From: Flavobacterium hungaricum
GTDB taxonomy: Bacteria; Bacteroidota; Bacteroidia; Flavobacteriales; Flavobacteriaceae
Assembly: GCF_015182285.1 (NCBI RefSeq)
Contig: NZ_PRDM01000002.1
Span: 620,001 to 684,000 of the forward strand
DNA length: 64,000 nt
Reading direction: 5' to 3'
In this document: piece by piece, positions 20,797-24,411 of the stretch
How positions within the stretch are numbered: position 1 is the stretch's first letter
Layout of the letters: every line of letters starts with the position of its first letter
Notes under the pieces: generated by a model
Database searches by the model: none
The model's input: the letters and a program-made list of their open reading frames with translations, nothing else
Told to the model about the DNA's origin: nothing
Translations under genes and position numbers: made by a program

Positions 20797-21357
20797 ATGC
20801 TGAAAAAAATAATTTTTGCGTCAACGATGATTTTGGCGATCATGATGGTAAGCTGTAAAAATGATGTGGTGCCAAAACCAGTTAGCTTTTTGCGTCTGGA
20901 CTATCCAGAAGCTGCGTATATGAATTTTGAAAACAGCTGTCCGTTTGCTTTCGAAATGAATGAAGATGCGATTATTAAGGGTGAAAAAGAATGCGGTTTT
21001 ACGATTACGTATCCTAAAATGAAAGCAACGATTTATTTGACCTATAAACCTGTAAATGGCAATATTGATAAACTTTTAAGAGACGCTCAAAAACTGACTT
21101 ACGAACACGTAATTAAAGCAGATGATATTTTGGAGCAACCTTACATTAATCCTTCAAAAAAAGTATACGGAATGTTTTATCAAGTTGATGGAAATGCAGC
21201 GACAAACTCTCAATTTTACGTTACAGACAGTACTAGGCATTTTTTAACAGGTTCTGTTTATTTTTATGCAAAACCTAACTTCGATTCGATTATGCCTGCA
21301 GCAAGTTATATTAAAAACGATATGCAGCGTTTGATGGAAACGTTGAAGTGGAAATAG
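20797..21357 (+). CDS. gldD: gliding motility lipoprotein GldD
   Basis: GldD is an essential gliding lipoprotein of Flavobacterium. The 186-residue protein has a lipoprotein signal ending MMVSC (C20), followed by PKPVSFLRLDYPEAAY, NSCPFAFEMN, and GSVYFYAKPNFDSIMPAASYI near the C-terminus, all typical of GldD. Its exact role is unknown; mutants are non-motile and defective in surface digestion, which ties it to the type IX secretion machinery. Spacing of 2 nt from gldE implies tight cotranscription. The 154 nt after it hold no evident terminator, and the next gene is convergent. Confidence 0.94.
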   Translation: MLKKIIFASTMILAIMMVSCKNDVVPKPVSFLRLDYPEAAYMNFENSCPFAFEMNEDAIIKGEKECGFTITYPKMKATIYLTYKPVNGNIDKLLRDAQKLTYEHVIKADDILEQPYINPSKKVYGMFYQVDGNAATNSQFYVTDSTRHFLTGSVYFYAKPNFDSIMPAASYIKNDMQRLMETLKWK

Positions 21358-21511: not shown

Positions 21512-22090
21512 TCAGAGATGTTTACGCAGCTTTTCATTGGAACTCTTCGGAGAGCTGGGCTCAATTATTAAGATTTTTTGTTCTAAAAAACTTAAAATTT
21601 TTTCAACTTCTATTAGAAATTTTTTATCAATTGTAAAATCTGTTTTAGAATGATTATTCCATATGAAATTATTATTATAAATTTCTAAAAAAATCTCTAA
21701 CGATGCATTCTCTAAGTACTCATTATTAATATATAATAAGTCACTATAAAATTCAATAAGAATTGATAAATTATGCCATATTTGAATATTTTTTTCGTTA
21801 AGTTCTTTTTCATTTTTTAATTTACTTAAGATATCGAAATCAATTATTTTAACATTACTTATGTCTTTAAAAGAATTAACCCAATCATTCAATTCACTCA
21901 TATTTATCTCATTATTGACATAATTTTTTAAAGTGATAAAATCAGGAAATATAAGAATTCTATCATTTTTATCTCTAAGAATAAATTCTTCATCTGTTTC
22001 TAAATAGGCACCCCAAACTAAAAAGTAACTTTCCTTTTTATAAAGTACTTTAAATAAATATTTGCGAAATTTTTCTGAAATATCTTCCAT
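21512..22090 (-). CDS. orphan protein behind a duplicated terminator (cassette A)
   Basis: This 192-residue acidic cytosolic protein (from MEDISEKFRKYL) is not recognised. It is very rich in Asn, Lys, Ile and Leu, has no signal peptide, and includes YFLVWGAYLETDEEFILRD and a long helical middle (NEKNIQIWHNLSILIEFYSDL). The open frame extends to 22165, but the extra residues (MHKRDACASLG...) come from a palindromic repeat, so the start is at 22090. It sits directly behind copy A of the duplicated 3' end of the metal-domain gene. Size, composition and position resemble orphan immunity genes of polymorphic toxins, but no toxin is nearby and this remains a guess. Confidence 0.65.
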   Translation of the reverse strand: MEDISEKFRKYLFKVLYKKESYFLVWGAYLETDEEFILRDKNDRILIFPDFITLKNYVNNEINMSELNDWVNSFKDISNVKIIDFDILSKLKNEKELNEKNIQIWHNLSILIEFYSDLLYINNEYLENASLEIFLEIYNNNFIWNNHSKTDFTIDKKFLIEVEKILSFLEQKILIIEPSSPKSSNEKLRKHL

Positions 22091-22141
22091 GATTATCTTC
22101 CTTCTTACATCTCTGAACCATTTTTTAACTTTACCCAAACT

Positions 22142-22168
22142 AGCGCAAGCATCTCGCTTGTGCATTCA
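22142..22168. repeat. palindromic repeat (RDACASL type), copy A
   Basis: GCGCAAGCATCTCGCTTGTGC pairs its ends (GCGCAAGC with GCTTGTGC). Read on the minus strand it encodes a false N-terminus. A related copy lies at 22748-22776, between the matching terminator and the matching orphan gene. Confidence 0.7.
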
Positions 22169-22170
22169 GG

Positions 22171-22324
22171 CAGTTTCTTAACAAATATAAATTAAAAAGG
22201 CGTTCAAATTTGAACGCCTTTTTAATATCTAAATTTGAAAACTTAAGACTTAAAATTTGAAACTTTATAAGTTTTTCCGTCTCCAGTTTCCTGAACGACT
22301 TTAGTCAAAGATTCTGGATTTTTA
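22171..22324 (-). repeat. direct repeat copy A: duplicated 3' end plus terminator of the metal-domain gene
   Basis: About 153 nt are nearly identical to 22779-22932. I count two substitutions and one single-base indel, about 98% identity, at an offset of about 608 nt. The copy contains the last 25 codons of the downstream-strand gene at 22852-23229, its stop and its terminator. Confidence 0.9.
22194..22223 (-). terminator. terminator, duplicated copy A
   Basis: AAAAAGGCGTTCAAATTTGAACGCCTTTTT is a perfect stem with flanking A and T runs, identical to the terminator at 22802-22831. Confidence 0.9.
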
Positions 22325-22353
22325 AATTTGTTAAACCATTTTAAATTATTCAT
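22243..22353 (-). pseudogene. 3' remnant of the heavy-metal-domain gene, refused to a new ATG
   Basis: The last 25 residues of the intact neighbour (NPESLTKVVQETGDG, then KTYKVSNFKS and stop) are repeated here in frame. Upstream similarity stops abruptly, and 11 unrelated codons from an ATG at 22353 (MNNLKWFNKFK) lead into the remnant, giving a 36-codon open frame. It lacks the signal peptide and the metal-binding loop, so it cannot be a functional metal carrier. Whether the small frame is translated is unknown. Confidence 0.75.
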
Positions 22354-22459
22354 TTGGATAGAATTTTACTATGATATTGTTCCAAGTGCAAAATTATGAG
22401 GCGTTTATATGGCTGGTGCTATTAGGTTTTATTTTTTTTAAAGACTCGTAACTTCACTT

Positions 22460-22720
22460 TTATTTTTCATTAAAGTTTAAATAATCTTCCTCATTTTTTA
22501 ATGCTCGAGGTAAAAATTCATTTGCTGCAGAAAGAATATGTTTCCACTCATCAACATTCATTAAAACATCAGTTTTAGACGTATAAAATTTGAAAACTAA
22601 TTCTTTCTCTTCCGAAATTCCAATTTCTAAAAAGGGTTTTTGACCATCTTTTAAGAAAACTTCCAAATAGGGATAATCAAAATTTATATCCCCTACTTCG
22701 TCAATTCTTATGTTTATCAT
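22460..22720 (-). CDS. small orphan protein behind the metal-domain gene (cassette B)
   Basis: The 86-residue acidic protein starts MINIRIDEVGDINFDYPYLEV and continues with FLEIGISEEKELVFKFYTS, then VDEWKHILSAANEFLPRAL. It looks like a compact alpha/beta cytosolic protein with no signal or membrane segment. The frame is open to 22792, but that extension reads ARARRSRWLG from a palindromic repeat, so ATG 22720 is chosen. I do not recognise a named family. As with cassette A, an orphan immunity-type protein is possible but unproven. It is enclosed between the two direct repeats at 22171-22324 and 22779-22932. Confidence 0.65.
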   Translation of the reverse strand: MINIRIDEVGDINFDYPYLEVFLKDGQKPFLEIGISEEKELVFKFYTSKTDVLMNVDEWKHILSAANEFLPRALKNEEDYLNFNEK

Positions 22721-22747
22721 AAATATATTATTATGAAAAGCCCCAAG

Positions 22748-22776
22748 CCAGCGAGAGCGTCTCGCTCGTGCATTAA
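22748..22776. repeat. palindromic repeat (RDACASL type), copy B
   Basis: CCAGCGAGAGCGTCTCGCTCGTGC is related to copy A at 22142-22168 and contains AGCGAGAGCGTCTCGCT, which is self-complementary. It lies between the intact terminator and the cassette B gene. Confidence 0.7.
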
Positions 22777-22778
22777 AG

Positions 22779-22932
22779 CAGTTTCTTAACAAATATAAAT
22801 TAAAAAGGCGTTCAAATTTGAACGCCTTTTTAATATCTTAATTTGAAAAACTTAAGACTTAAAATTTGAAACTTTATAAGTTTTTCCGTCTCCAGTTTCC
22901 TGAACGACTTTAGTTAAAGATTCTGGATTTTG
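22779..22932 (-). repeat. direct repeat copy B (intact 3' end of the metal-domain gene)
   Basis: This is the parental copy of the repeat at 22171-22324. It runs from just outside the palindromic repeat through the terminator and into the last 25 codons of the metal-domain gene. Confidence 0.9.
22802..22831 (-). terminator. terminator of the metal-domain lipoprotein gene
   Basis: A perfect AAAAAGGCGTTC/GAACGCCTTTTT stem begins about 20 nt after the stop codon. Confidence 0.92.
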
Positions 22933-23229
22933 AACCGTTTTATCAAAGCTTACAGTGGCAGTTTTTTTGTCAAAATCTACGGTTGCTTTTTCAACTCCAT
23001 CAAGATTTGCTAATTCTTCTTCTATAGTTTTTGCACATCCAACAGCACAAGTCATTCCGTCTATTGTGAAACTTGCAGTTTGTAGATTTTCTGCAGCAAT
23101 TGCTTTGTGTTCTTTAGCGGTATTTTTTTCTGCATTTACAACTTGCAGGCTTTTATCTTCTTCTTTTTTACAGCTGGTAAGGGTTAGACCAACGATTGTT
23201 GCGGCAATTAAAATTTTTGAAATCTTCAT
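22852..23229 (-). CDS. heavy-metal-associated (HMA) domain lipoprotein
   Basis: The 125-residue protein has a lipoprotein signal ending LTLTSC (C20), a short charged linker, and an HMA domain from about residue 51. The metal loop is GMTCAVGCA with C61 and C65. This is a CxxxC variant of the usual MxCxxC copper loop, with one extra residue. A role as a periplasmic or envelope metal (probably copper) binding protein is inferred; no copper ATPase or efflux gene is adjacent. Its 3' end and terminator were duplicated downstream. Confidence 0.85.
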   Translation of the reverse strand: MKISKILIAATIVGLTLTSCKKEEDKSLQVVNAEKNTAKEHKAIAAENLQTASFTIDGMTCAVGCAKTIEEELANLDGVEKATVDFDKKTATVSFDKTVQNPESLTKVVQETGDGKTYKVSNFKS

Positions 23230-23330: not shown

Positions 23331-24197
23331 ATGGAAACAAAACAGTTAAAGTGGATTTATTTAACTATTCTTTCTCTTATTTGGGGGAGTTCTTTTATTT
23401 TAATAAAAAAAGGATTGATCGGCTTAACGGCGATTCAGGTTGGGTCGTTTAGAATCATTTTTGCAGCCTTGTTTCTGTTACTTATAGGTTTTAAAAGTCT
23501 TAAAAAAATCTCCCGCCGACAGTGGAAGTTTGTTGCTGTAACTTCTCTATTTGGAACTTTTATGCCGGCTTATCTTTTTGCCATTGCCGAAACGCAGGTT
23601 GACAGCTCTATTGTGGCTATTTTAAATTCACTGACACCTTTAAATACTTTAGTTTTGGGAACTGTAGCTTTTGGGATTCAGTTTCAAAAACGACAGATTT
23701 TGGGTGTTTTTGTTGGACTTGTGGGGTGTTTGCTTTTGGTTTTAAGCGGTGATGCTGCGGGGGGAGGTCAAAATTACCTTTATGTTTCGCTGGTTGTTAT
23801 CGCTACGCTTAGTTATGCTATAAATGTGAATTTAATTAAGAAATATTTACACGATTTAAATTCGCTGAGTATTACAACGGGAAATTTTACCGTATTGTTG
23901 CTGCCAGCACTTTTAATATTGAGCACAACAGATATCAGTCAGAAAATACATCTTGAAACGGCGCAAACCTCCATCTTCTTCGTGATGATTTTAGGTGTCT
24001 TAGGAACTGGAATTGCCAACATAGTTTTCTTTAGATTAATTCAAATGTCGTCTCCAGTATTTGCAACTTCAGTAACGTATTTGATTCCGATCGTCGCTTT
24101 TTTCTGGGGATTATTAGATAACGAAATGCTGACTCCGATTCAGTTTTTCGGTGCATTTATTATTTTAATTGGCGTTTATTTGTCGGCTAAGAAGTGA
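23331..24197 (+). CDS. EamA/DMT-family transporter
   Basis: The 288-residue integral membrane protein has about ten hydrophobic helices arranged as two EamA repeats (residues about 8-137 and 150-287). Characteristic segments are WIYLTILSLIWGSSFILIKKGL at the N-terminus (helix 1) and PVFATSVTYLIPIVAFFWG in the second repeat, closing with FGAFIILIGVYLSAKK. DMT proteins export small metabolites such as amino acids; the substrate here cannot be told. It is a single-gene unit, divergent from the HMA gene. A long C-less repeat tract follows its stop. Confidence 0.9.
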   Translation: METKQLKWIYLTILSLIWGSSFILIKKGLIGLTAIQVGSFRIIFAALFLLLIGFKSLKKISRRQWKFVAVTSLFGTFMPAYLFAIAETQVDSSIVAILNSLTPLNTLVLGTVAFGIQFQKRQILGVFVGLVGCLLLVLSGDAAGGGQNYLYVSLVVIATLSYAINVNLIKKYLHDLNSLSITTGNFTVLLLPALLILSTTDISQKIHLETAQTSIFFVMILGVLGTGIANIVFFRLIQMSSPVFATSVTYLIPIVAFFWGLLDNEMLTPIQFFGAFIILIGVYLSAKK

Positions 24198-24199
24198 TA

Positions 24200-24374
24200 G
24201 GAGGTTAGTAGTTGTAAGTTAGTAGCTGGGAGTTAGTAGTTAGGAGTTAAGGGTTAAGGGTTAAGGGTTAAGGGTTATAAGTTAAGAGTTAGGGGTTAAA
24301 GGTTAAGAGTTAAGGGTTGAGGGTTAAGAGTTAAGAGTTAGGAGTTAGGAGTTAAGAGTTATAAGTTAAGAGTT
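24200..24374 (+). repeat. telomere-like degenerate heptamer tract with a G-quadruplex motif
   Basis: About 25 head-to-tail units of the form RRRGTTA (AGGGTTA, AGAGTTA, AGGAGTTA) run after the EamA stop. The strand carries almost no cytosine for about 170 nt. Four GGG runs separated by TTAA at 24251-24274 make a canonical intramolecular G-quadruplex motif. The rest of the 24198-24529 gap holds only the terminator below. Confidence 0.85.
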
Positions 24375-24411
24375 TGGCTTTACTTCGCTCGGTCTGATAA
24401 AATGATTTCAT

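What the first reader, a model, noticed from the sequence alone, without database searches (positions are those of the whole stretch)
21512..22932. Orphan-gene cassettes captured behind duplicated 3' ends of a metal-domain gene
The last 25 codons, stop and terminator of the HMA lipoprotein gene (22779-22932) are repeated about 608 nt downstream (22171-22324) with roughly 98% identity. Behind each copy lie a palindromic repeat and then a different, unrelated orphan gene (86 and 192 residues). The arrangement [3' end, terminator, palindrome, orphan gene] twice suggests that foreign DNA carrying the flank and a new orphan gene recombined into the flank and displaced the older one. Orphan immunity genes of polymorphic toxins are known to accumulate that way. 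An alternative is insertion of a small element that rebuilds the gene end. The 3' end of this gene may be a landing pad for variable small genes.
Basis: partly seen in the sequence, partly recalled or inferred. Interest (0 to 1): 0.68.

Follow-up and report, generated by a model that had tools for sequence, protein, structure and literature searches.

The report
Docking site for spare antidote genes
A bacterium has collected two spare genes that look like antidotes against rivals' toxins at the tail end of an unrelated gene, and related species keep different genes, sometimes a whole toxin locus, at the same spot, so it looks like a natural docking site for such genes.

Summary
The repeat is real: 22171-22324 and 22779-22932 align with 150 identities, 3 mismatches, 2 gaps. 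Behind each copy lie a terminator, a promoter-like TATATTTG, a REP palindrome and a different small gene.

Both genes belong to families found beside Rhs toxins: orf86 relatives in 7 of 8 loci; orf192's one convincing relative among 398 genus genomes starts 2 nt behind an Rhs gene. The neighbouring toxin ends are not found in this genome. They are probable orphan immunity genes.

The site is variable: of 87 HMA|gldD gaps, 42 are <=100 bp and 34 >330 bp, with many different cargoes; two species carry an Rhs locus there. A convergent control gap is 35-64 bp in all 24 resolved of 30.

The HMA-coding scar occurs only here (43 gaps tested); G305 has a shorter lead scar. Homology breaks in or after a REP in several gaps. 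Best reading: capture by homology-anchored illegitimate recombination. Immunity arrays made that way are known; the unrelated anchor gene and the REP-promoter lead are new.

The parts
22852..23229 (-). HMA-domain lipoprotein gene, the conserved gene whose 3' end is duplicated (anchor)
   Evidence: Pfam HMA 4.4e-15; beside gldD/EamA in relatives
22799..22834 (-). terminator hairpin, unit A
   Evidence: perfect palindrome, z -8.3
22790..22797 (-). TATATTTG, promoter-like -7 element (Bacteroidetes consensus TAnnTTTG, recalled), unit A
   Evidence: T[AT]TATATTTGT within 110 nt of the HMA stop in 8 of 87 gaps, all 8 over 330 bp
22741..22771 (-). REP palindrome with GGGG tail, unit A
   Evidence: core is one of 21 genome copies; homology between units ends at its tail
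22460..22720 (-). orf86, probable orphan Rhs immunity gene
   Evidence: relatives beside Rhs genes or toxin ends in 7 of 8 loci; toxin end not found here; GC 0.268
22243..22353 (-). fused remnant (scar): 11 foreign codons joined to the last 25 codons and stop of the HMA gene
22191..22226 (-). terminator hairpin, unit B
   Evidence: z -8.6
22182..22189 (-). TATATTTG, promoter-like element, unit B
22134..22163 (-). REP palindrome with GGG tail, unit B
21512..22090 (-). orf192, probable orphan Rhs immunity gene
   Evidence: 35% identical over 174 aa to a gene 2 nt behind an Rhs gene in another species; toxin end not found here; GC 0.223
20797..21357 (+). gldD, convergent conserved border of the landing site
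   Evidence: Pfam/NCBIfam GldD

Best explanation
The gap between the convergent genes HMA and gldD is a permissive landing site for Rhs polymorphic-toxin loci, their immunity genes and other small cargo. In this genome it holds two unrelated orphan immunity genes. The likely last step: incoming DNA carrying HMA 3' end-terminator-promoter-REP-orf86 paired with the resident HMA gene (homologous anchor), and its other end was joined illegitimately into the resident HMA tail. That pushed the older unit (25 HMA codons-terminator-promoter-REP-orf192) towards gldD and left the scar. Each immunity gene so has its own terminator/promoter lead. The products would neutralise Rhs toxins of neighbouring competitors. 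Shown: the repeat, the changing content, the Rhs linkage of both gene families elsewhere, no match to the neighbouring toxin ends in this genome. Inferred: immunity function, direction of the event, promoter activity.
For: Repeat with one clean end inside HMA. Copies closer to each other (74 of 75) than to any other species compared (at most 70 of 75), so donor and recipient were close kin. Both gene families lie beside Rhs toxins elsewhere. Toxin ends not found in G000 (E<=0.1) but found in the control genomes. An Rhs locus lies in this gap in two relatives, each with a different last gene; RHS_repeat is over Pfam's cut-off in part 1 of both and in part 2 of L137 at genome level, below it for both part-2 proteins scanned as such. 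Gap length and content vary while HMA-EamA stays at 99-109 bp in 87 of 88 loci (G006 counted twice, L099 dropped by the filter) and a convergent control gap at 35-64 bp in 24 of 30, 6 unresolved. The 15 gaps labelled orphan need 15 changes on the tree, at least 8 forced by starred branches. Low GC of both genes. A second lead in L091. The same kind of event is proposed for immunity arrays in PMC5361080 (section 13 read).
Against: A copy of HMA coding sequence is unique among 43 gaps tested. No second strain of this species was available. The orf86 relative in Chitinophaga (L143) has no Rhs gene in the ORFs read within about 8 kb. orf192's link rests on one relative. No fold match for orf86; no usable model for orf192. 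The REPs of the two units differ far more than the DNA before them, which one recent duplication does not explain by itself. Much of the cargo in other gaps is not immunity-like: 11 VOC, 2 Crp/SMR, 2 XRE (names by eye) and 12 with mere filler. In the 20 genomes present in both the test and the control set, 7 gaps against 0 exceed 150 bp, but 4 of the 7 are filler without a gene of note (my cross-table).
Confidence: 0.62

Rival explanations
1. The REP, not the HMA homology, is the working site: RAYT cleavage or hairpin-induced breakage at REPs lets cassettes be cut and joined, and the HMA repeat is a by-product.
For: Homology stops at the REP tail between the two window units and between L091, L138 and L139, which share an orphan gene plus REP and then carry three different genes; in L138 and L116 a REP half stands 83 nt behind the HMA stop and other DNA follows. 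REP half-sites: 9 in 57,352 gap bases, shuffled mean 1.0, maximum 4 of 50 shuffles (two of the nine are in L102, one of them poor). A Y1 (RAYT-like) transposase gene flanked by these REPs is in the genome.
Against: REPs commonly sit behind genes (recalled), so a homology break there may only mark the end of a gene unit. L017 and L118 changed content without a REP. Few and related cases.
Confidence: 0.2
2. Plain tandem duplication of one HMA-tail/immunity unit, followed by replacement or divergence of one immunity gene.
For: Both units have the same order and near-identical lead DNA.
Against: The repeat finder shows no repeat between orf86 and orf192, and their relatives lie in different lineages beside different Rhs toxin ends; 11 foreign codons are joined to the scar; the REPs are far more diverged than the leads.
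Confidence: 0.1
3. A rAID-like system: a tyrosine recombinase inserts immunity cassettes at conserved intergenic motifs.
For: Co-oriented short low-GC orphan genes with conserved intergenic motifs, as in rAID (definition seen in passages of PMC12247911).
Against: No recombinase family among 10 neighbouring proteins scanned nor among the 5 at the locus; only two genes.
Confidence: 0.05
4. A small mobile element inserted and rebuilt the gene end.
For: Insertion leaves an intact gene 3' end, as some integrative elements do (recalled).
Against: No integrase or transposase family among the neighbouring proteins scanned; cargo is a single gene; the joint 22336-22460 has no convincing match elsewhere in the genome or in the fetched loci (best E 0.03 and 0.008).
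Confidence: 0.06

Closest known systems
Orphan immunity arrays made by homology-facilitated illegitimate recombination, Vibrio cholerae T6SS (PMC5361080; passages and section 13 read)
   Same: A conserved upstream stretch anchors incoming DNA, the other end joins illegitimately, and the older immunity gene is pushed downstream; a displaced gene's 3' end can stay behind
   Different: There the anchor is the upstream region of the effector-immunity module; here it is the tail of an unrelated HMA gene, no effector is present, and a REP and promoter-like element lie in each unit
Rhs orphan immunity genes, Serratia Db10 (PMC10539506; passages read)
   Same: Orphan genes related to immunity genes behind Rhs toxins; protection was shown there
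   Different: There they lie behind an intact rhs gene and its own immunity gene; here no Rhs gene is in the gap, though two relatives have one there
rAID acquired interbacterial defence of Bacteroidales (PMC12247911; passages read)
   Same: Co-oriented short low-GC orphan immunity genes with conserved intergenic motifs
   Different: No tyrosine recombinase found; two genes only; the motif is a terminator, promoter-like element and REP
REP/RAYT repeats (PMC3733652; passages read)
   Same: Short palindromes in several copies, some beside a Y1 transposase gene
   Different: Here some sit at borders where immunity-gene content changes

Membership tests
Orphan Rhs immunity gene | family found directly behind Rhs toxin genes | tested here: met
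   orf86: 7 of 8 loci beside Rhs frames or Rhs toxin ends, read by eye, 8-9 nt behind in L147/L148 (Pfam run on the L148 Rhs only); orf192: one relative, 2 nt behind
Orphan Rhs immunity gene | cognate toxin absent from the genome | tested here: met
   relatives' toxin ends: 0 matches in G000 at E<=0.1, control genome found each time. G000 does have two RHS-repeat matches elsewhere; a cognate toxin of other sequence cannot be excluded
Orphan Rhs immunity gene | protects against the toxin | not testable with these tools
   needs bench work
Orphan Rhs immunity gene | match to a described immunity family or fold | tested here: not met
   nothing over a cut-off in Pfam, NCBIfam, PHROGs or PADLOC; best PDB sequence E 0.11 and 0.072; no Foldseek match at E<=0.001 for orf86; orf192 model unusable
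rAID | tyrosine recombinase gene with the array | tested here: not met
   none among the 15 proteins scanned
rAID | co-oriented short genes with conserved intergenic motifs and low GC | tested here: met
   the 86-codon gene is slightly under the 100-300 codons named in PMC12247911
REP/RAYT | palindrome in many copies, copies beside a Y1 transposase gene | tested here: met
   21 copies, 0 in control; L057:4440-4988 Y1_Tnp 2.8e-8 with copies on both sides
REP/RAYT | GTAG or CGTC tag at one end | not tested
   the repeat ends were printed but no tag was assigned

The most novel reading that the evidence does not exclude
A recombinase-free capture platform: the unit [end of a conserved gene, terminator, promoter, REP hairpin] is kept in several species of the genus, and single immunity genes are swapped in behind it by cutting and joining at the REP, perhaps with the RAYT transposase, so that each captured gene arrives with its own promoter. 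Duplication of the platform, as here, turns one slot into two.
Probability: 0.18. Interest if true: 0.8.

Novelty: new variant of a known kind. Interest (0 to 1): 0.52.

Why it matters
It ties a REP/promoter lead at the end of an ordinary gene to the turnover of antidote genes in conflict between bacteria. A full-text search of the held library for Flavobacterium + orphan immunity + Rhs gave 0 papers; a broader one (Flavobacterium, Rhs, polymorphic toxin, immunity) listed 11, of which I opened none, so a description may exist. The site gives a defined place to measure how fast such genes come and go, and a concrete test of whether REPs take part in gene exchange.

Tried and rejected
Old ordinary duplication with the same genes in all relatives: rejected. 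Scars in other species: HMA and gldD ends against the gap in 43 gaps gave only chance 13-17 nt matches outside the window (for L029 only 1500 bp and no gldD). On rechecking I compared leads too: L091 has a second half-terminator plus TATATTTGTT; other matches (L002, L118, L139, L092 in themselves; L024, L026, L096, L113, L118, L122, L139 to the window lead) lack TATATTTGT at the match and look like terminators, filler repeats or AT-rich DNA. Shared cassette-tail motif behind orf86, L013 and L016 (integron-like idea): 16, 187 and 277 of 500 shuffles as good, dropped. Fold of orf86: model pLDDT 80.8, no PDB match with E<=0.001. orf192 model pLDDT 45, not searched. Weak AcrIIA13 match of orf86 (E 0.11) taken as chance. 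Rhs part 2 of L136 against G000: no match, without a positive control in that call. orf192/G185 alignment in 279 family-level genomes: only itself.

Full report
Observation. Read in the direction of the HMA gene, the order is: HMA gene, terminator, TATATTTG, REP palindrome, orf86, 11 foreign codons joined to the last 25 HMA codons and stop, terminator, TATATTTG, REP, orf192, and then gldD on the other strand. The HMA part of the second copy is 74 of 75 nt identical to the first; the best other species has 70 of 75. Past the terminator and promoter-like element the identity falls from 151 of 153 to 28 of 36 in the REP (my count; Fisher p 3e-5) and ends at its tail.

What the two genes are. Neither matches a described family over its cut-off, nor a known fold. 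orf86 has 8 relatives in the genome collection, 54-71% identical. I read their surroundings by eye: in L147 and L148 they start 8-9 nt behind an Rhs reading frame with one and the same toxin end; in L142 and L146 they lie behind a stand-alone piece of that toxin end; in L144, L145 and L149 they lie in strings of small genes behind Rhs-like frames; in L143 (Chitinophaga) no Rhs gene is near. Pfam was run on the L148 Rhs only (DUF6443, RHS_repeat). orf192 has one convincing relative in 398 genomes of the genus (35% over 174 aa, E 1.8e-29; 13 other genomes match at E 3e-4 to 0.01); it starts 2 nt behind a 1503-aa gene with an RHS repeat, followed by a string of Rhs ends and small genes. In 279 family-level genomes only orf192 itself was found. 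The toxin ends beside these relatives give no match in this genome, while the control genomes gave them. RHS repeats as such are common: 16 of 16 genomes tested, this one included. So both are probable orphan Rhs immunity genes; protection itself is not shown.

What the place is. Of 87 gaps (one genome per species, the best HMA matches among the 398 genomes and the 150), 42 are <=100 bp with little but a terminator, 11 are 101-330 bp and 34 longer; the 43 over 150 bp fall into 15 groups by DNA similarity. One of them (L029) has no gldD in reach. Names of cargo are by eye unless a Pfam call is given: 15 gaps with small genes mostly of unknown kind, 11 with a VOC-like gene, two with Crp plus SMR genes, two with an XRE regulator, and in G006 and G206 an Rhs locus with OmpH-like and lipoprotein genes, two Rhs frames, and a different last gene in each. 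Of the small genes scanned, one matched DUF7336 and one RDD over the cut-off; one was barstar-like below it (E 0.006). On a quick tree the 15 orphan gaps need 15 changes (shuffled mean 14.2, so not clustered; starred branches alone force 8). Controls: HMA-EamA 99-109 bp in 87 of 88 loci, G006 counted twice; the convergent murF gap 35-64 bp in the 24 of 30 genomes where it could be read. In the 20 genomes present in both sets, 7 against 0 gaps exceed 150 bp (my cross-table; Fisher p 0.008), but 4 of the 7 hold filler only. I tested one convergent control pair; L139 shows that another convergent gap can also gain genes.

The lead. The string T[A/T]TATATTTGT within 110 nt of the HMA stop occurs in 8 of 87 gaps, all over 330 bp, none of the 42 empty ones. 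For the looser TAnnTTTG in the first 140 nt it is 10 of 34 long gaps against 2 of 42 empty; shuffled long gaps give a mean of 3.7 and a maximum of 9 in 200. That this is the Bacteroidetes -7 element is recalled, not tested. In the window, L138 and L116 a REP or its first half stands 83-84 nt behind the HMA stop; in L138 and L116 only the half is there and other DNA follows. L091, L138 and L139 share an orphan gene plus REP (80-93%), homology stops at the REP tail, and three different genes follow. In L091 a half terminator plus TATATTTGTT, about 44 nt, 91% identical to the window's lead, stands again in front of the second gene: a second, shorter scar of the same lead. The REP family has 21 copies in this genome, some flanking a Y1 transposase gene.

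Mechanism. One homologous end in HMA and one ragged joint fit homology-facilitated illegitimate recombination, proposed for immunity arrays of V. cholerae (PMC5361080, section 13 read in full). There the anchor is the upstream region of the effector-immunity module; here it is an unrelated gene's tail. The strong REP divergence between units and the breaks at REPs elsewhere leave room for a REP-based exchange, which I rate at about one in five. A rAID system in the strict sense is not met: no recombinase among the 15 proteins scanned.

Limits. One genome per species and no second strain of this one; related species are not independent; the HMA-coding scar is unique among the gaps tested; immunity function and promoter activity are inferences.

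Noticed in passing
L136:1477-12569, L137:1556-12828: Two-frame Rhs loci with OmpH/Skp-like and lipoprotein genes (names by eye) and different toxin ends and last genes, between HMA and gldD in two related species.
   Followed up: partly
L005, L010, L137:12942-13346, L052, L055, L056: A family of small XRE-like regulators (MSTxxKPxHIGRKISRIRELKDMKQEALAQALG...) recurs beside REPs in this genome and as cargo in the HMA|gldD gap of relatives.
   Followed up: no
L057:4274-5308: Y1 (RAYT-like) transposase gene with REP copies on both sides; possible source of the REP family.
   Followed up: partly
window 24190-24385: Array of 7-nt repeats (GTTAAGG/GTTAGGA type) between EamA and an M16 peptidase gene.
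   Followed up: no
L139:8745-10308 (reverse complement of the locus): The convergent gap between the RNase E/G-like gene and a penicillin-binding-protein-like gene holds two extra, similar-looking genes in G365; in G216 (L138) it is about 115 bp. Possibly another variable gap.
   Followed up: no
L026, L096-L098, L105, L113, L117, L121, L122, L125, L126: A VOC/glyoxalase-like gene (by eye) recurs in the HMA|gldD gap of 11 loci, scattered on the tree.
   Followed up: no
L091:619-662 of the gap (HMA orientation): A second half-terminator plus TATATTTGTT in front of the RDD-family gene: a shorter scar of the same lead as in the window.
   Followed up: partly
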